From a virus: a stretch of 42,812 bases of DNA. The stretch is taken from the IMG/VR virus record IMGVR_UViG_3300025141_010727, positions 1 through 42,812 of that record; one strand, given 5' to 3'. The notes under the pieces are model-generated. The model was given only the letters and a program-made list of their open reading frames with translations. It ran no database searches and had not been told where the DNA came from. This document shows positions 3,779 through 24,720 of this stretch, piece by piece; position 1 is the stretch's first letter; every line of letters begins with the position of its first letter. Position numbers and translations under genes: made by a program.

Positions 3779-4364
3779 GTATGTAGTAGAAAGACTTCAC
3801 GAAGCATTCATGATCAATGAAGAAATTAGTTCCAAGACCACAAACAAACTATTTAAATATATTTCAGATAGAGGTGATAAAGATATAAATATAACTATAG
3901 ATTCAGATGGAGGAGATATAGAATCAGCGTTATGTATGTATGATATATTAAGATCTTTACCTGAAAAACAATCAATTTTTACAATAGTATTGGGGAAGTG
4001 TTATTCGGCTACAAATATAATATTTTGTGCATCACAAGAAAATAGAATGGCATTTGAAAATTCTTCATTTATGATTCATAATATAATGACATCGTTCGAA
4101 TTAGAAGACGTAGGTAAAATATATTCAGCAGTAAAACATACATTAAGTATTCAGGAAAGGATGTATGATATAATAGGGTCTTGTATGACAGTTAATCCAA
4201 GAACTTTTGTAAAGAATAATGATGAATGGTATATGGATGGTAAATCAGCATCTAAATATAAATATGCAAAAGTTATTTGTCAAGGGTTAGAAGATGTCAA
4301 AGAAGATAACAAAGAAATAATTATGGCTCAGTATCCCATCCCCCGCCCGCGTAATGTAAATTAA
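3777..4364 (+). CDS. ClpP-like serine protease
   Basis: 195 aa from a TTG placed 6 bases after AAAGGAGG. It shows the ClpP/crotonase-like fold: TIDSDGGDIESALCMYDIL (substrate-groove strand and helix), GKCYSATNIIFCAS with the probable nucleophile Ser77, SSFMIHN with the catalytic His101, and an Asp in NNDEWYMDG near residue 150. The length matches bacterial ClpP (about 195-207 aa). In phages this family often serves as a head-maturation protease or an unassigned protease; no portal or capsid gene is nearby, so I do not choose. Translation may be controlled by the hairpin just upstream. Confidence 0.85.
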   Translation: MYVVERLHEAFMINEEISSKTTNKLFKYISDRGDKDINITIDSDGGDIESALCMYDILRSLPEKQSIFTIVLGKCYSATNIIFCASQENRMAFENSSFMIHNIMTSFELEDVGKIYSAVKHTLSIQERMYDIIGSCMTVNPRTFVKNNDEWYMDGKSASKYKYAKVICQGLEDVKEDNKEIIMAQYPIPRPRNVN

Positions 4365-9423: not shown

Positions 9424-9561
9424 ATGAACCAACAGTTATCAAATGCATTTAAAAACCAGCTTGTACAGGATATTGGGTTTACAAAATCTTATAATCCTGT
9501 ACAAGCTGGTAATGTTACAATCCAGATAACAATTATGTTAGGGAGGCTTTCTAACAACTAA
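9424..9561 (+). CDS. Possible 45-residue ORF overlying an inverted repeat
   Basis: ATG at 9424 opens a 45-codon frame ending TAA at 9561, with no convincing ribosome site. Both arms of a perfect 17-bp inverted repeat lie inside it, so the sequence may serve as RNA or DNA structure rather than protein. No family recognised. Confidence 0.25.
   Translation: MNQQLSNAFKNQLVQDIGFTKSYNPVQAGNVTIQITIMLGRLSNN
9455..9510 (+). repeat. Perfect 17-bp inverted repeat
   Basis: ACCAGCTTGTACAGGAT (9455-9471) is the exact reverse complement of 9494-9510, with a 22-base spacer. As RNA this is a very stable hairpin; as DNA it could be a cruciform or a palindromic binding or cleavage site. Confidence 0.85.
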
Positions 9562-9589
9562 AAATACTAAAAATGTAGTATTTTAAGTC

Positions 9590-9623
9590 TAGGCCTGCCA
9601 ACAGTTTATGTTTGGCAGGCCTA
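9590..9623 (+). terminator. GC-rich hairpin, probable terminator
   Basis: TAGGCCTGCCAA (9590-9601) pairs perfectly with TTGGCAGGCCTA (9612-9623), 12 bp with a 10-base loop, followed by a modest T-rich run (ATTTGTT). A weaker 9-bp hairpin (9561-9569 with 9576-9584) precedes it. It could end transcripts from the element at 9366. The weak T tract lowers confidence. Confidence 0.55.
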
Positions 9624-9753
9624 ATTTGTTACAGACCAACAGTTTAGGATAGCTACTTTTTATGCAGTTTTGGATTACGTTTAGCATACAATTTATTATA
9701 TTATATAGGTTAGGAAAGATACAACAAACATGATGGCTACTTAGAGGAATGTT

Positions 9754-10196: not shown

Positions 10197-10470
10197 AGAA
10201 GATCAGGCTGATAATTATCTCGAAGAAGTATTCGAACGATTGGTTAAATATACTGACGAGGGAAAAGCAGAGATACTGATCGAGGTATACGGTGTCGAAA
10301 CCATTCTTTGTAATGGAAGAAACGGCTGGACCCCGGAGGCCTGCGCTCAGAGCATCGCGAACTACGATGACATGTGGCCGGAAGAGGCAAAAGCAATTGA
10401 AATACAGATAAAGTTGGATCAAGAGCGTAGAGATCAGTTGAAGTCCGAAATGAATGTAGGATCCATTTAA
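10189..10470 (+). CDS. Unknown protein (93 aa), GC-richer than its surroundings
   Basis: ATG at 10189 (MSREDQADN) is chosen over upstream in-frame GTG codons because GGTGGTGG lies at the right distance. Charged helical protein with GWTPEACAQSIANYDDMWPE. Bases from about 10310 on are noticeably richer in G and C than the rest of the window, a trend that continues to about 10800 and suggests separate origin. No family recognised. Confidence 0.65.
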   Translation: MSREDQADNYLEEVFERLVKYTDEGKAEILIEVYGVETILCNGRNGWTPEACAQSIANYDDMWPEEAKAIEIQIKLDQERRDQLKSEMNVGSI

Positions 10471-10481
10471 GGAGCAGAAAA

Positions 10482-10646
10482 ATGTCACGCACAGTAAGAA
10501 GTGAGTTCAGGAATCTTGCACATAAGAATGCCCAAATGGGCAGCGCAGGCCCACACACTTCAAAGAAGTATCGTAGGGAAAATCGTGAAGCAGTTCGCGA
10601 TGCACTTGCCGAGGAAGAGATTATTGAAGCCACACATATTGAATAA
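10482..10646 (+). CDS. Small basic/acidic protein (54 aa)
   Basis: ATG at 10482 follows AAGGAG at 10468-10473. The product begins MSRTVRSEFRNLAHKNAQMG and ends with an acidic LAEEEIIEA segment. The frame, strong ribosome site and GC-rich composition like its neighbour argue that it is real. It ends directly against the folded RNA candidate at 10647-10795. Confidence 0.65.
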   Translation: MSRTVRSEFRNLAHKNAQMGSAGPHTSKKYRRENREAVRDALAEEEIIEATHIE

Positions 10647-10795
10647 TGAAGGGGTCGCTCTCGCGGATAACATAGCGACCAAAAGCCGACACGATATTTC
10701 GTGTAGGAATGATAGGACTTAGGGACCTATCTATTACGGTGATACTGGTAGGATGGCACCTGGGAATACGCCGTAACAGTATCAGCGACCCCTCA
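10647..10795 (+). ncRNA. Folded non-coding RNA candidate with possible pseudoknot
   Basis: A 9-bp closing helix joins GGGGTCGCT (10651-10659) to AGCGACCCC (10784-10792). Stacked directly inside is GATACTG (10741-10747) with CAGTATC (10777-10783). Local hairpins are ACACGA/TCGTGT (10689-10694, 10699-10704) and GATAGG/CCTATC (10711-10716, 10726-10731). TACGG (10735-10739) can pair with CCGTA (10771-10775) across the inner helix, making a pseudoknot. The 5' arm can instead pair with AGCGACC at 10674-10680. No known RNA family recognised. It lies between a small gene and a tRNA relic. Confidence 0.55.
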
Positions 10796-10818
10796 ATCCG
10801 GTTTAGCTCAGCTGGCAG
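10796..10818 (+). pseudogene. 5' half of a tRNA gene (relic)
   Basis: TCCGGTT (acceptor-like) followed by TAGCTCAGCTGGCAGAGC matches a textbook tRNA D-arm (GCTC/GAGC). Beyond it the anticodon arm is replaced by an AT hairpin (TATAAAA/TTTTATA), and no T-arm or matching AACCGGA acceptor strand follows. It is a remnant, or a 5' piece whose partner is elsewhere. Confidence 0.6.
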
Positions 10819-10862
10819 AGCTATAAAAAAGGTTTTATACAGTTACATGTTTATATAGAAGT

Positions 10863-10937
10863 TCCTAGATGGCTCATGGGCAGATCGGAACACTGTTAGT
10901 GTTCTGGTTGGGGGTTCGAGTCCCTCTCTAGGAGCCA
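10863..10937 (+). tRNA. tRNA-Asn (GTT)
   Basis: Acceptor TCCTAGA pairs with TCTAGGA. Anticodon stem GAACA/TGTTC encloses CTGTTAG, giving anticodon GTT. The T-arm has loop TTCGAGT. Discriminator G and CCA are encoded (10935-10937). One D-stem mismatch. GTTTATATA lies just upstream (10849-10857). Confidence 0.93.
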
Positions 10938-10967: not shown

Positions 10968-11459
10968 ATGAATTTAGGTAAACAGATTGATCTGTATGAT
11001 TTACAAGATTATCCAGTCCTTTATCTTTTGGTTAGGACAGATATTGATTCAATGAATCCTGGAAAATTGGCTGCACAATGCGGCCATGCAGTTTCAATGT
11101 TTATGCAAAAAGTATTGAATCCTTGTCTAATTGACCTTCAGCCTCAAACCAATTCTGTCAGCTCGACCGCGTCAGGCAAAGTTGATTATAAAATACGGAA
11201 AACTTTTAATGAATGGTTTAAGGGAGATCGAGGATTTGGAACAAAAATAACATTAGATATTGATTCAATTGAAAATCTTAATTATATACATGACGAATTA
11301 AGTGATGCTGGTTATTTAACCGATTTAGTTCATGATCCTACATATCCTTTAGAGGATGGAGAATTTACACATTTGATTCCGCTTGTAACTTGTGGATATG
11401 TGTTTGGTAATAAAATAGAATTGTTAAATCATTTAAATAGTTATCCATTATACAAATGA
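10968..11459 (+). CDS. Peptidyl-tRNA hydrolase, Pth2 family
   Basis: 163 aa, ATG after AGAAAGG. VLYLLVRTDIDSMNPGKLAA followed by QCGHAVSMF matches the Pth2 (archaeal/eukaryotic-type) core: strand, then GKlAAQxgHA with the conserved Gln and His. An insert (about 55-85) and LTDLVHDPTYPLEDGEFTHL complete the domain. Family reaction: release of peptides from stalled peptidyl-tRNA. Its place beside the tRNA genes suits maintenance of phage tRNAs during infection. Confidence 0.82.
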   Translation: MNLGKQIDLYDLQDYPVLYLLVRTDIDSMNPGKLAAQCGHAVSMFMQKVLNPCLIDLQPQTNSVSSTASGKVDYKIRKTFNEWFKGDRGFGTKITLDIDSIENLNYIHDELSDAGYLTDLVHDPTYPLEDGEFTHLIPLVTCGYVFGNKIELLNHLNSYPLYK

Positions 11460-16613: not shown

Positions 16614-17777
16614 ATGACAGAAGAAGCAACTCGTCCAGAACTTATGCGTGAAGCACTAGGATTTGATGATATTGGTTTAATTGCAGCAGACCAATCAAAT
16701 ATAGCTTCACGAAAACAAGTATATACATACACAAAACTTTCTAAAAATATAACTATAGAGTATCCTATTATATCATCGCCAATGGATACAATATCAGATG
16801 TTGATACTTGTATAGCGTTGAATAATATTGGTGCTGCAGGTATTCTTCATAGGTTTATGTCAATTGAAGAACAAGTAGAAAAAGCGGAAAAGATAAATAA
16901 AGAAAGTGGAGCAGTCTATGTAGCAATAGGATTAGGTGATTATGAAGAACGTATTAATACATTATTAAAATCATCAGCTGATCCAGATTTATTATTTTTG
17001 GATACTGCAAATGGTGCTTCAATTCAAGTAACAGAATTTATGAGATGGTGGAATAATAAGAAGAAATCATTCGCATCGGATTATATATCTCCTGATATGA
17101 TAATTGGAAATACAATGTCAAAGGCATCTGTTTCAAGAGCTTTTAATTTAGGCGCGGATGGAGTTAGGCACGGAATCGGTATCGGAAGTATGTGTATTAC
17201 ATCAATGCAAACAGGAATTCATTGTCCAGCCGTCACATCATTATATTATGGATGGAAAGCAAAACGCAATTACGAACTGCAACAGGTAGATTCGTTATCC
17301 AACAACCCAATGCCATCCTTACTTTGTGACGGAGGAATAAGAAAACCTGCAGATTTGGTTAAAGCAATTATTTCAGGTGCTGATGCAGTAATATGTGGTA
17401 ATATATTTGCAGGATGCAATGAAACACCAGGTAAAGTTATAATAAAAAAGCCGATTGCAGGTAATCCTGATTCTGGTCCAATTGATAAGTATAAGAAATT
17501 CAGAGGTATGGCTTCAGCAGGTGTTGTAGAAGATTACGGTTTAGGTGATGGAACTACAGAAAACAGATTTATTGAAGGTGAAGAAACCCTCGTGCGATGC
17601 AACGGAAAATCCGTTGTTGATGTCGTACACGAGTTGAATAATGGTCTTAGAAGTGCAATGTCTTATCTAGATTATGAAAAATTAAAAGATATGAAAGGTA
17701 CTTTGTGGACCGGTGGTGTTAAGGCAATTAGATTAACAAATTCATCGTATATTGAAGGAACACCACATGGAAAGTAG
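16614..17777 (+). CDS. IMP dehydrogenase / GMP reductase family enzyme
   Basis: 387 aa without CBS domains. TIM-barrel features: LGFDDIGLIA near the start, YPIISSPMDTISDVDTCIAL, GADGVRHGIGIGSMC with the catalytic Cys near 194, LLCDGGIRKPADLVKAIISG then ADAVICGNIFAGC (phosphate-binding), and FRGMASAGVV (flap region). The flap and the segment NRFIEGEETLV leave it unclear whether it makes XMP from IMP or reduces GMP to IMP. It would shift the purine pool during infection. Genes of this family in related uncultured phages are known split-intein hosts; this copy is continuous. Confidence 0.85.
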   Translation: MTEEATRPELMREALGFDDIGLIAADQSNIASRKQVYTYTKLSKNITIEYPIISSPMDTISDVDTCIALNNIGAAGILHRFMSIEEQVEKAEKINKESGAVYVAIGLGDYEERINTLLKSSADPDLLFLDTANGASIQVTEFMRWWNNKKKSFASDYISPDMIIGNTMSKASVSRAFNLGADGVRHGIGIGSMCITSMQTGIHCPAVTSLYYGWKAKRNYELQQVDSLSNNPMPSLLCDGGIRKPADLVKAIISGADAVICGNIFAGCNETPGKVIIKKPIAGNPDSGPIDKYKKFRGMASAGVVEDYGLGDGTTENRFIEGEETLVRCNGKSVVDVVHELNNGLRSAMSYLDYEKLKDMKGTLWTGGVKAIRLTNSSYIEGTPHGK

Positions 17778-18030: not shown

Positions 18031-18057
18031 TTTTTATATAGTTATTATATAATTCGA

Positions 18058-18157
18058 AATGACTAGAGATAGATCGTTCGAGTTACACTGTTCTTGTAGG
18101 AATGGGACGACGAGGAATTTAAGGTCTATAGGCATTAACACCTATAGGCCTTTTTTT
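18058..18157 (+). ncRNA. Small RNA candidate with own promoter and terminator
   Basis: A TATAAT box (18048-18053) precedes about 60 non-coding bases and then a strong terminator. Inside, TCGTTC (18074-18079) pairs with GGACGA (18105-18110) around a small TTCT/GGAA hairpin. No open frame fits. It shares the 10-mer TGTAGGAATG with the RNA candidate at 10647-10795, which may be chance. No known family recognised. Confidence 0.45.
18121..18157 (+). terminator. Strong rho-independent terminator
   Basis: AAGGTCTATAGG (18121-18132) pairs with CCTATAGGCCTT (18141-18152), 12 bp with one G-T pair and an 8-base loop, followed by seven T residues. The clearest terminator in the window; it separates the IMPDH-like operon from the 5' nuclease operon. 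Confidence 0.85.
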
Positions 18158-18198
18158 GTTTAAAAAAGAGGCTCTTTTTGTTTACATAGAGGCGCCAA

Positions 18199-21234: not shown

Positions 21235-22485
21235 ATGGCAGTAGATAAGTTGTTAGAATGGTATAATGGTGATAAAATGGCTTCGGATATTCTTAAGGAA
21301 AAATATCTTATGAAAGATGAAGAGCTTCCTAATGATATGTGGCGAAGATTAGCAAGTTCAATTGCCAAAGTAGAAAGTGACCCTGACAATAGTAATAGTG
21401 ATAATGGTGTAGAAGTATATGATATGTGGAATTCAAAATTCTACGAACTTTTAAAAGATTGGAAATTCATACCAGGGGGTAGAATTAATTATGCTGTAGG
21501 TAGAGATGAAAAAGTTAGTTGTACAAATTGTTATGTAGTTCCTATCAGAGATACTATAGATTATGAAAGTAATAATGAAATAATTGAAGCTGATTCTATT
21601 GAAGGTATATATAACTGGCTTAAAGAATCTGCATTAACATACCGTTCAACAGGTGGTGTTGGTGTAGATATATCTGTTTTAAGGCCAAAAGGAACAAAAG
21701 TAAAAAATTCAGGGGGTGAATCTCCTGGTGCTACATCGTTCATGGATTTAATGTCGAGGTCAACGCACACTGTCCATCAAAAACTAAGACGCGGTGCATT
21801 GATGATTACAATTAATGTTCATCACCCTGACATATTGAATTTTATAAACATAAAGAAAATCCTTGGTCAAATTAACTATGCAGAAGGTGAAGGAGATGGT
21901 TATAATGACCTTTATAAATTGGTAGAATATGCAAATATATCTGTCCTTATAACAGATGAGTTTTTGGAAGCATTAGAAAAAGAAGAAAAATATGAACAAA
22001 GATTTCCTGTCGATGTAGAAAAGCCGCAGATCAAGAAAAAAGTTTCTGCAAAAAAGATTTGGAATGCTATTGTTGAAAATGCTCATGCTCATGCTGAGCC
22101 AGGTATTCTTTTTATTGATAATCATCGTAGGAATGATAGTTTAGGTTATATTAACCCTACTATTACAACAAACCCATGCCTTGTAGATAATACTAAATTA
22201 AAAACATCAGAAGGTTTAATTGAAATAAAAGAACTTGCATTAATGTATTTTAATAATGTTAAAATGCCTAAAATACTTACATTTAATGTAGATACTAAAC
22301 AATTAGAATGGGAAGAAATTATTCAGGCCGGTAAAACTGGTGAAGATAAAAATATTATAGAAATAGAAACAGATGATGGATGTATACTAAGACTCACACC
22401 AAATCACAAGATATATACAGAAAATAGAGGGTATATAGAAGCAGCTAAACTCACAGAAGAAGATATACTTATAAGTATAGAATGA
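21235..22485 (+). CDS. nrdJ: Class II ribonucleotide reductase N-part fused to N-intein
   Basis: 416 aa. Residues 1-314 are the N-extein: WKFIPGGRINYAVG, SCTNCYVV (redox Cys), STGGVGVDISVLRPKG, SPGATSFMDLMSRSTHTVHQ and PTITTNP, all typical of B12-dependent NrdJ. At residue 315 (22177) an intein begins: CLVDNTKLKTSEG (block A, Cys1) and ETDDGCILRLTPNHKIYT (block B, TxxH). The frame ends TGA at 22483-22485, so the intein is naturally split. The partner is the gene at 23131. Only trans-splicing would give a full enzyme. Confidence 0.93.
   Translation: MAVDKLLEWYNGDKMASDILKEKYLMKDEELPNDMWRRLASSIAKVESDPDNSNSDNGVEVYDMWNSKFYELLKDWKFIPGGRINYAVGRDEKVSCTNCYVVPIRDTIDYESNNEIIEADSIEGIYNWLKESALTYRSTGGVGVDISVLRPKGTKVKNSGGESPGATSFMDLMSRSTHTVHQKLRRGALMITINVHHPDILNFINIKKILGQINYAEGEGDGYNDLYKLVEYANISVLITDEFLEALEKEEKYEQRFPVDVEKPQIKKKVSAKKIWNAIVENAHAHAEPGILFIDNHRRNDSLGYINPTITTNPCLVDNTKLKTSEGLIEIKELALMYFNNVKMPKILTFNVDTKQLEWEEIIQAGKTGEDKNIIEIETDDGCILRLTPNHKIYTENRGYIEAAKLTEEDILISIE
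22177..22482 (+). mobile_element. Split intein, N-terminal fragment
   Basis: 102 residues from Cys1 to the last codon before TGA, with splicing blocks A and B; block B His is in TPNHK. No endonuclease domain is inside. Lengths (about 102 + 42) match natural split inteins of phage NrdJ, gp41 and IMPDH described in metagenomes. Confidence 0.9.
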
Positions 22486-22488
22486 TTC

Positions 22489-22535
22489 TAATCCCTGTTT
22501 AACTTATATTTATTTATAAAAGGGGGCAGGGATTA
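22489..22535 (+). promoter_or_regulatory. Hairpin with promoter-like loop at the endonuclease start
   Basis: TAATCCCTG (22489-22497) pairs perfectly with CAGGGATTA (22527-22535); the right arm runs from just after the ribosome site AGGGGG (22521-22526) to the first base of the ATG. The loop holds TTATATTTATTTATAAAAG, similar to late-promoter sequence. In T4, I-TevI translation is blocked in read-through RNA by a hairpin whose late promoter lies inside; the same layout is inferred here. Confidence 0.65.
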
Positions 22536-23179
22536 TGAATAGAGAATTAAATGAAGAATTAAAAAAAGAATTAGAAGAAAAATATAATGATGGATATGGA
22601 TTTAAAGCTTTAGCTAAAGAGTATAATTCATCATATACAAGAATGAGAACAGTTTTTAAAAAACTTGATATTAAACATAGAAAAGGCCGAAAAGTAGTTA
22701 CTAATAGATTAAGAAAATTAAGATCAGAAAAAGCTAAAAAAGAATATGAAACAAAATCTGGTTGGTGGAGTGATAATATTGTTAGAAAAATACATAATGC
22801 AACAATTGGATATCAAGGATACTATTATAATAGAATAAGAAAAAAATATGTTTGGTTAAGAAGTTCTATAGAATATTCTTATGCTAAGTGGCTTGATAGA
22901 AATAAGATAGATTGGGATGTAGAATACAAAACATACGAAGTAAATGGAAAGTTATATAAACCAGATTTTTTTATTTTTGAAAATGGAAATCTTGTAAAAA
23001 TAGTAGAAACAAAAGGTTATGATAGAAGTCGAGATTGGAAAACCACAGAATTAAATAAGATTTTGAGTATACCAGTGGTTTTAATAGATAATATCAAATC
23101 TTATACCCAGCATTCACAGGAGACCGAAGAGTGGAAAAAAGTAAGATTAAACGAACAAGAATTAAAGCAATTAAAGTAA
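22535..23179 (+). CDS. Free-standing homing endonuclease, PD-(D/E)XK (EDxHD/Vsr-like)
   Basis: 214 aa, ATG at the edge of the hairpin. A basic helical N-terminus (FKALAKEYNSSYTRMRTVFK, probably DNA binding) leads to a nuclease core: RSSIEYSYAKWLDRNKIDW, YKPDFFIFENG (Asp near 143) and VKIVETKGYDRS (Glu-x-Lys near 157). This pattern fits the Vsr-like homing nucleases found between the halves of fractured phage genes. It probably cuts intein-less nrdJ alleles near the insertion site. Its 3' end overlaps the C-intein gene by 49 bases. Confidence 0.85.
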   Translation: MNRELNEELKKELEEKYNDGYGFKALAKEYNSSYTRMRTVFKKLDIKHRKGRKVVTNRLRKLRSEKAKKEYETKSGWWSDNIVRKIHNATIGYQGYYYNRIRKKYVWLRSSIEYSYAKWLDRNKIDWDVEYKTYEVNGKLYKPDFFIFENGNLVKIVETKGYDRSRDWKTTELNKILSIPVVLIDNIKSYTQHSQETEEWKKVRLNEQELKQLK

Positions 23180-23256
23180 TTGAAAATGCTGATGTATACA
23201 ATTTAACTACTGAAAAGAACCATAATTATTTTGCAGAAAATGTTTTAGTTAAAAAT
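23131..23256 (+). mobile_element. Split intein, C-terminal fragment
   Basis: 42 residues from a GTG to the Asn before the C-extein Cys. DVYNLTTEKNHNYFAENVLV is block F, and it ends VKN followed by C. The terminal Asn is present; the penultimate residue is Lys rather than the common His. The GTG has AGGAG (23118-23122) eight bases upstream. Confidence 0.9.
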
Positions 23257-24720
23257 TGTGGTGAACAATTTCTTGGGGCTTATTCAAATTGTCTTTTAGG
23301 GCATATGAATTTAAGTAAATATGTTACAAATTTAAATAGTGATAATAAACCATTTTTTGAATTTACTAGCTTTAAAGAAGATATAAAAACAGCAGTTCGT
23401 TTCATGGATAATGTGATAGATTATAATGATGGTAAGCATGCATTGCTACAACAAAATGAAACAGCAATGAATGAGCGTAGAATCGGTTTAGGTTTTACAG
23501 GCCTTGCTGATATGTTTGTAAAATTAGGAGTAAAGTATGATAGTGATAAAGCAATAGAATTAATTGATTTAGTAATGAAAGAATTCAGGGATGCTGCATA
23601 TGAAGCATCAGTGGAATTGGCAGAAGAAAAAGGTGCATTTCCTTGGTTTGAAAAAGATGAATGGTTAAAATCGGAATTTACTAAAAATTGGTATGATGAA
23701 GTTTTAGCAGGTGATTCCGAGTTAAATGAAGAAGGTTTAAAACCTAGTGAACTATATGAAAAATTTAAAAACACTGGAATTAGAAATTCATTCCTTCTTA
23801 CAGTAGCACCAGTTGGAAGTGGATCCATTATCGCTCAAGTATCAAGTGGTCTTGAACCAATCTTTGCAACTTCCTATACACGAAGAGTTAGACAACCTGA
23901 TGGCCAAAAATTCTACGAATATAAAACATATCCTAAAATCATATCAGAACTTTTTGGAGATGATACATCACTTCCAAATTATGTAGTTACTTCGCATGAT
24001 ATTGATCCCTTTTATAGAGTGAAGCTTCAAGGTGTTATTCAAAGATATATTGATAATTCAATTAGTAGTACGATTAACTTACCATCAGACACGCCGATTG
24101 ATGTTGTTGCAAAAATTTATATTGATGCCTGGAAAGAAGGCCTTAAATCAACTACTATTTATCGAGATGGTTGTAGAGAAGGCGTACTTATTACAGATAA
24201 AAAATCTAAAACAGCGGAAAAAGAAGATGAAGCTAAAAAAACTAGGCCTATCACTTTGGGAAGTAAAACGTACAAAATCCCAGACGGCCCAGACAGAAAA
24301 TTATACATCACAATTAGTGGGTTTGAAAATGATCCTTATAGACCGTTTGAAGTTTTCATACAAGCTTATGGACCCGATGATGCAGAAGTAAAGGCAATTG
24401 CAATTTTAGTTTCAGCATTACTCAGAAAATGCGAAGATATAGATTTTCTTATAGATCATTTAGGAAAGATTGATTCGCCAAAGCAAGGTGCAATGTGGCA
24501 TGATAAAGAAGCTAAGAAGAAATACTACATTAACTCTGTCCCTAGAGCAATAGGGATTGCATTGAAAAAGTTTATAAGTAATGGGCAAGATGTTATAAAG
24601 GAAAAAGATGAAGCATCACTTAATGGTGCACAATACTGTCCGAAGTGTCATGCAATAGCATTGATAAAAGAAGAAGGCTGTGAAAAGTGCCTGAATTGTG
24701 GGGCCGCAAAATGTTTCTAA
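23131..24720 (+). CDS. nrdJ: C-intein fused to class II ribonucleotide reductase C-part
   Basis: 529 aa: 42 of intein and 487 of C-extein. The extein begins CGEQFLGAYSNCLLGHMNLS; joined to the N-part this restores NPCGE, the class II active-site motif, with the second Cys 11 residues on. Later features are AMNERRIGLGFTGLADMF, TVAPVGSGSIIAQVSSGLEP, TTIYRDGCREGVL and a C-terminal zinc ribbon (YCPKCHA, CEKCLNCGAAKC). Spliced product about 801 aa, normal for NrdJ. Reduces ribonucleotides with adenosylcobalamin, using thioredoxin. Confidence 0.93.
   Translation: MEKSKIKRTRIKAIKVIENADVYNLTTEKNHNYFAENVLVKNCGEQFLGAYSNCLLGHMNLSKYVTNLNSDNKPFFEFTSFKEDIKTAVRFMDNVIDYNDGKHALLQQNETAMNERRIGLGFTGLADMFVKLGVKYDSDKAIELIDLVMKEFRDAAYEASVELAEEKGAFPWFEKDEWLKSEFTKNWYDEVLAGDSELNEEGLKPSELYEKFKNTGIRNSFLLTVAPVGSGSIIAQVSSGLEPIFATSYTRRVRQPDGQKFYEYKTYPKIISELFGDDTSLPNYVVTSHDIDPFYRVKLQGVIQRYIDNSISSTINLPSDTPIDVVAKIYIDAWKEGLKSTTIYRDGCREGVLITDKKSKTAEKEDEAKKTRPITLGSKTYKIPDGPDRKLYITISGFENDPYRPFEVFIQAYGPDDAEVKAIAILVSALLRKCEDIDFLIDHLGKIDSPKQGAMWHDKEAKKKYYINSVPRAIGIALKKFISNGQDVIKEKDEASLNGAQYCPKCHAIALIKEEGCEKCLNCGAAKCF

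What the first reader, a model, noticed from the sequence alone, without database searches (positions are those of the whole stretch)
10647..10795. Previously unrecognised folded RNA with a possible pseudoknot and two-state 5' arm
A 9-bp closing helix, a stacked 7-bp helix, two local hairpins and a 5-bp crossing helix fit one molecule of about 149 bases; the 5' arm has a second exact 7-base partner (10674-10680). The pairing is too extensive for chance and no gene covers it. It could be a riboswitch-like switch, a ribozyme or a trans-acting RNA.
Basis: seen in the sequence. Interest (0 to 1): 0.7.

Follow-up and report, generated by a model that had tools for sequence, protein, structure and literature searches.

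The report
Orphan folded RNA beside phage tRNAs
A stretch of about 144 bases in an uncultured phage almost certainly encodes a tightly folded non-coding RNA next to the phage's tRNA genes, but no relative could be found anywhere, so what it does cannot yet be told from sequence.

Summary
Window 10650-10793 (+) folds into one closed molecule: a 10-bp closing helix (not 9), a 7-bp helix abutting it, two perfect 6-bp hairpins, and an alternative 5' hairpin using the second AGCGACC at 10674-10680. Its MFE is the lowest of 427 sampled plus-strand windows; none of 4000 dinucleotide shuffles folds as well (z -4.4); the signal peaks exactly at these coordinates. Codon statistics show the overlapping ORFs are not genes. 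The "crossing helix" (10734-10741/10769-10776) is real but within chance (11% of shuffles). It is as stable as the 7-bp helix and more likely competes with it than forms a pseudoknot. The two-state 5' arm is in the sequence; the short repeat behind it is not rarer than chance.

No Rfam family, HDV-like motif, reverse transcriptase, CsrA or Ro partner was found. Covariance-model, pattern and neighbour-anchored searches found no homologue, only identical copies in two contigs of the same virus. Covariation is therefore untestable.

Best reading: a stable non-coding RNA of a phage tRNA operon, like T4 RNAC/RNAD (also function unknown). Riboswitch and ribozyme readings have no support. A 54-codon ORF precedes it; a 5' half-tRNA-Thr relic, tRNA-Asn and PTH2 follow.

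The parts
10482..10646 (+). 54-codon ORF immediately upstream (stop TAA 3 nt before P1), with a good Shine-Dalgarno (AAGGAG); no known family
   Evidence: sequence; no Pfam/PHROGs match; no phage relative
10650..10793 (+). folded non-coding RNA (core)
   Evidence: 0 of 4000 shuffles fold as well, z -4.4; non-coding by codon statistics
10650..10659 (+). P1 5' strand (AGGGGTCGCT), closing helix
10784..10793 (+). P1 3' strand (AGCGACCCCT)
10653..10680 (+). H5: alternative 5' hairpin GGTCGCT/AGCGACC, the most stable fold of the nascent 5' part, excluded by P1 in the finished molecule
   Evidence: prefix folding
10686..10707 (+). P3 hairpin (6 bp + 2 bp across a G.A mismatch; loop UAUU)
10711..10731 (+). 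P4 hairpin (6 bp, 9-nt loop)
10741..10783 (+). P5: 7-bp helix GATACTG/CAGTATC, its 3' strand contiguous with P1 3' strand
10734..10776 (+). S1: helix TTACGGTG/CGCCGTAA, crosses P5 or replaces it
   Evidence: chance level 11%
10798..10823 (+). relic of a tRNA-Thr 5' half (acceptor 5' strand + D arm), no 3' half
   Evidence: 22 nt identical to a bacterial tRNA-Thr; not called by ARAGORN
10863..10937 (+). tRNA-Asn (GTT)
10968..11459 (+). peptidyl-tRNA hydrolase PTH2
   Evidence: PF01981 E 1.4e-11

Best explanation
10650-10793 is transcribed on the + strand as part of a phage transcript that also carries a 54-codon ORF, tRNA-Asn and PTH2. It is released as (or persists as) a compact, stable, non-coding RNA of about 145 nt that acts in trans, the counterpart in position and size of the small stable RNAs RNAC and RNAD of the T4 tRNA region. 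Its folding is sequential: a 5' hairpin (H5) and S1 form first, and the last 17 nt transcribed (CAGUAUCAGCGACCCCU) displace both to give P1 + P5, closing the molecule with a quasi-continuous 17-bp stack. SHOWN: the fold is beyond chance, non-coding, single-copy in the window, next to tRNA genes. COMPUTED on one sequence: the folding order. INFERRED: strand, transcription, processing, action in trans.
For: Fold beyond chance and peaking at these ends; helix count and closing helix beyond shuffles; overlapping ORFs score like out-of-frame sequence; neighbours on + are tRNA-Asn, PTH2 and a tRNA relic; prefix folding shows H5/S1 then P1/P5; T4 annotates rnaC (139 nt, z -4.6) and rnaD (119 nt) next to tRNA-Arg, classed as late RNAs and checked by Northern blot, functions unknown (PMC9697503, PMC3014915).
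Against: No homologue, so no covariation. No promoter or terminator bounding it above chance. The minus strand folds as well. The downstream tRNA half lacks a T arm and so is unlikely to be an RNase P site. No model similarity to T4.
Confidence: 0.45

Rival explanations
1. A cis-acting 3'-UTR or intergenic structure: the closed fold, starting 3 nt after the stop codon of the 54-codon ORF, blocks 3' exonucleases and separates that mRNA from the downstream tRNA during processing.
For: Position directly after a stop codon; stable closed fold.
Against: A simple hairpin would do; the four-helix architecture is more than needed. No U-run for termination.
Confidence: 0.2
2. Relic or chance: a GC-rich, recently acquired patch (about 10250-10850) with a decayed tRNA, whose pairing is an accident or the remnant of a lost element.
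For: No homologue at all; the tRNA-Thr half next to it is a pseudogene; GC 42-51% against mostly 25-38% around; 4 other windows of 427 have a lower z; S1 and H5 are at chance level.
Against: 0 of 4000 shuffles; lowest MFE of the sampled windows; sharp peak at the helix ends; P1 has ten perfect pairs.
Confidence: 0.2
3. A two-state regulatory RNA (riboswitch-like or leader-peptide attenuator): H5/S1 and P1/P5 are mutually exclusive, and an overlapping TAATG mini-ORF (10646-10675, MKGSLSRIT) would let a ribosome hold the 5' arm open.
For: Both alternatives exist, and one 17-nt 3' strand flips both; TAATG overlap and mini-ORF are in the sequence.
Against: No regulated protein gene, RBS or terminator in direct reach; alternatives are at chance level; the finished molecule is essentially all P1 in the computed ensemble.
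Confidence: 0.08
4. A self-cleaving ribozyme (HDV-like/theta type) that processes the adjacent tRNA.
For: Theta ribozymes lie next to phage tRNAs (PMC10879173); crossing helices.
Against: No HDV-like arrangement on either strand; no Rfam ribozyme at E<5; theta ribozymes sit at a tRNA 3' end, this lies upstream of tRNA sequence.
Confidence: 0.03
5. A CsrA/RsmA-type decoy using its six GGA motifs.
For: Six GGA in 149 nt, a count reached in 3% of windows of this genome.
Against: Not above dinucleotide shuffles (p 0.26); several GGA are base-paired and only one is ANGGA; no CsrA in the window.
Confidence: 0.03

Closest known systems
T4 RNAC and RNAD (species 1 and 2 RNAs)
   Same: Small (139 and 119 nt), in the phage tRNA region; RNAC is as strongly folded (z -4.6); RNAC carries a tRNA-like T-arm half (read from its sequence), as this RNA is joined by a tRNA half; function unknown
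   Different: No covariance-model similarity; RNAC/D lie downstream of the tRNAs and are experimentally observed transcripts; RNAD is not unusually stable by z
GOLLD and ROOL RNAs
   Same: Structured phage ncRNAs near tRNA islands, function unknown (PMC12286853)
   Different: About 600-800 nt and form homo-oligomers; no Rfam match here
Theta (minimal HDV-like) ribozymes
   Same: Phage, tRNA-associated, two crossing helices in principle
   Different: No P1-P2-P3-P1.1 arrangement with catalytic C

Membership tests
Any Rfam 15 family | score at or above gathering, or E<5 with lax filters | tested here: not met
   only tRNA-Asn and noise
HDV-like / theta ribozyme | nested double pseudoknot with P1, P2, P3, P1.1 and catalytic C in J4/2 | tested here: not met
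   home-made descriptor (pairs incl. G-U, P1 6-7, P2 4-7): 0 hits on both strands of the region
T4 RNAC/RNAD | location in a phage tRNA region | tested here: met
   tRNA-Asn 70 nt downstream, tRNA relic adjoining
T4 RNAC/RNAD | homologous sequence/structure | tested here: not met
   model R1 finds nothing in the T4 record; folds differ
T4 RNAC/RNAD | stable discrete transcript | not testable with these tools
   no transcriptome available
Retron ncRNA (msr-msd) | adjacent reverse transcriptase | tested here: not met
   no RVT_1 in the 42.8-kb record, control genomes ring; record is a fragment
Y RNA | Ro/TROVE protein encoded nearby | tested here: not met
   no PF05731 in the record; record is a fragment
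CsrB/RsmZ-type decoy | GGA motifs enriched and exposed in loops | tested here: not met
   6 against 4.6 expected in shuffles, p 0.26; several paired
Riboswitch | control of an adjacent ORF through RBS or terminator | tested here: not met
   next elements are tRNA relic and tRNA; no terminator on +
Structured RNA family in general | covariation among homologues | tested here: inconclusive
   no homologue; only identical copies in two contigs of the same virus

The most novel reading that the evidence does not exclude
A phage RNA built as a coupled double strand-exchange device: one 17-nt 3' strand simultaneously displaces two earlier helices (H5 and S1), so the molecule changes state when its 3' end is completed or removed. 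It would belong to a class with no described relative.
Probability: 0.06. Interest if true: 0.6.

Novelty: new member of a known kind. Interest (0 to 1): 0.3.

Why it matters
If transcribed, it adds to the small set of phage tRNA-region RNAs whose role is still unknown, such as T4 RNAC/RNAD. An orphan in a little-sampled virus lineage also shows that such RNAs can exist without belonging to any described family. By itself it answers no open question.

Tried and rejected
Homologue hunts that failed: blastn of the region in phages, plasmids and E. coli genomes. Protein-anchored viral scans with PTH2, UvsX and DNA polymerase, PTH2 and polymerase also as alignments. Pattern scans of viral contigs; the 7 new hits are GC-rich sequences with other folds and no model match. 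A single-sequence covariance model R1 over PTH2-bearing and DnaE-bearing virus records and T4. The one weak hit, 11 bits in phage phiM19, is at noise level. Model caveat: built from one distinct sequence, nested helices only, so remote homologues can be missed. Genome-collection scans served only to identify the tRNA half. Coding alternatives (73-aa and 49-aa ORFs) rejected by codon statistics. Mobile repeat (MITE-like) rejected: single copy in the window. A 14-nt similarity to a second folded element at 18.1 kb (13/14) lies in a different structural context and was taken as chance.

Full report
WHAT IS THERE. The window is a virus record of IMG/VR encoding UvsX, gp32-like protein, DNA ligase, DnaE-type polymerase, DnaB, NrdA, thymidylate synthase and nine tRNAs. 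Its only near relatives in IMG/VR are contigs of the same virus, with identical proteins; the two that cover this region are 99.9% identical to it over 12.5 kb and identical over the RNA. Window 10650-10793 lies between the stop of a 54-codon ORF with a good ribosome-binding site and a tRNA half, tRNA-Asn and PTH2, all on +.

THE FOLD. P1 (10 bp) closes the molecule; P3 and P4 are perfect 6-bp hairpins; P5 (7 bp) abuts P1 so that one 17-nt 3' strand pairs throughout. H5 (7 bp) is an alternative for the P1 5' arm and S1 (6 WC, 8 with G-U) an alternative for, or a crossing partner of, P5. Energies: finished molecule -55.5 with P1+P5 and -54.5 with P1+S1; forcing H5 costs 5.6 kcal/mol. Pair probabilities in the finished molecule: P1 core 1.0, P3 and P4 about 1.0, P5 0.76, S1 0.24, H5 0.00. 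Prefix folding gives H5 from 40 nt on and S1 at 128-136 nt; P5 replaces S1 by 144 nt, and P1 replaces H5 in the complete molecule. P5 and S1 would be linked by 1 and 0 nt if both formed, a strained geometry; competition is more likely than a pseudoknot (inference).

CHANCE. The 149-nt stretch has z -4.1, the 144-nt core z -4.4 with 0 of 4000 shuffles as stable; neighbouring windows shifted by 20 nt fall to -1.2 and -2.3. Among 427 plus-strand windows it has the lowest MFE and the fifth-lowest z. Six WC helices of >=6 bp against 1.7 expected (p 0.007); longest helix p 0.0035; but crossing 6x7 helices occur in 11% of shuffles. The ends were chosen after seeing the fold, so these are not genome-wide significance values. 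The minus strand is as foldable because nearly all pairs are Watson-Crick.

NOT A GENE. The 73-aa (10501-10722) and 49-aa (10709-10858) ORFs score -0.41 and -0.48 in codon log-odds, against 0.16 +/- 0.09 in frame and -0.76 +/- 0.28 out of frame.

THE tRNA HALF. TCCGGTTTAGCTCAGCTGGCAGAGCT carries 22 nt identical to the 5' half of a tRNA-Thr of an uncultured Firmicutes genome; no other genome of the collection has that 22-mer exactly. No 3' half was found. Without a T arm it is unlikely to be an RNase P substrate (general knowledge).

RELATIVES. None found by blastn, by pattern, by neighbour-anchored scans or by covariance model over whole records of PTH2-bearing and DnaE-bearing viruses and T4. 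The model comes from one distinct sequence, so these negatives are moderate evidence only. Covariation is untested.

WHAT IT WORKS LIKE. The closest precedents by place and size are T4 RNAC and RNAD (139 and 119 nt, next to tRNA-Arg), classed as late RNAs and checked by Northern blot, function unknown (PMC9697503, PMC3014915). RNAC folds as strongly (z -4.6). GOLLD and ROOL show that large structured phage RNAs are often encoded near tRNA islands (PMC12286853). None is a homologue by these tests. Theta ribozymes (PMC10879173) were tested by descriptor and not met. Retron, Y-RNA and CsrA-decoy readings lack their partners in this fragment or their motif enrichment.

VERDICT. Observation confirmed; interpretation partly supported: a real, orphan, folded RNA, most likely a stable phage RNA of the tRNA operon (0.45), with cis-structure (0.20) and relic/chance (0.20) as serious rivals. 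Pseudoknot and two-state claims remain open and are statistically unremarkable.

Noticed in passing
window 18048-18160: A second folded element (161-nt stretch z -4.4) in a 0.6-kb gap, ending in a strong intrinsic terminator at 18121-18152; looks like a stand-alone sRNA gene; no Rfam or phage match.
   Followed up: partly
window 9455-9640: Strong hairpins after uvsX, including one of about 19 bp (9455-9510); 201 nt fold with z -8.5. The strongest fold signal of the window.
   Followed up: partly
window 21235-24720: Ribonucleotide reductase large subunit split into two genes, each with half an intein (PF14890 at the break), and a 214-aa ORF between (22535-23179): a fractured gene with a probable split intein.
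   Followed up: partly
window 10250-10850: GC-rich patch (42-51%) in AT-rich surroundings, including the 97-aa and 54-aa ORFs without relatives; perhaps a recent acquisition.
   Followed up: partly
window 10646-10675: Mini-ORF MKGSLSRIT overlapping the upstream stop as TAATG and covering the 5' arm of the RNA; no own ribosome-binding site.
   Followed up: no
L010 (phage DSS3_MAL1) about 2041-2132 and 3942-4032: tRNA-Ser-like sequences with unusual T loops (ATCGAGA), not among the record's annotated tRNAs.
   Followed up: no
window 16614-17777: Phage-encoded IMP dehydrogenase/GMP reductase family protein, an uncommon phage gene.
   Followed up: no
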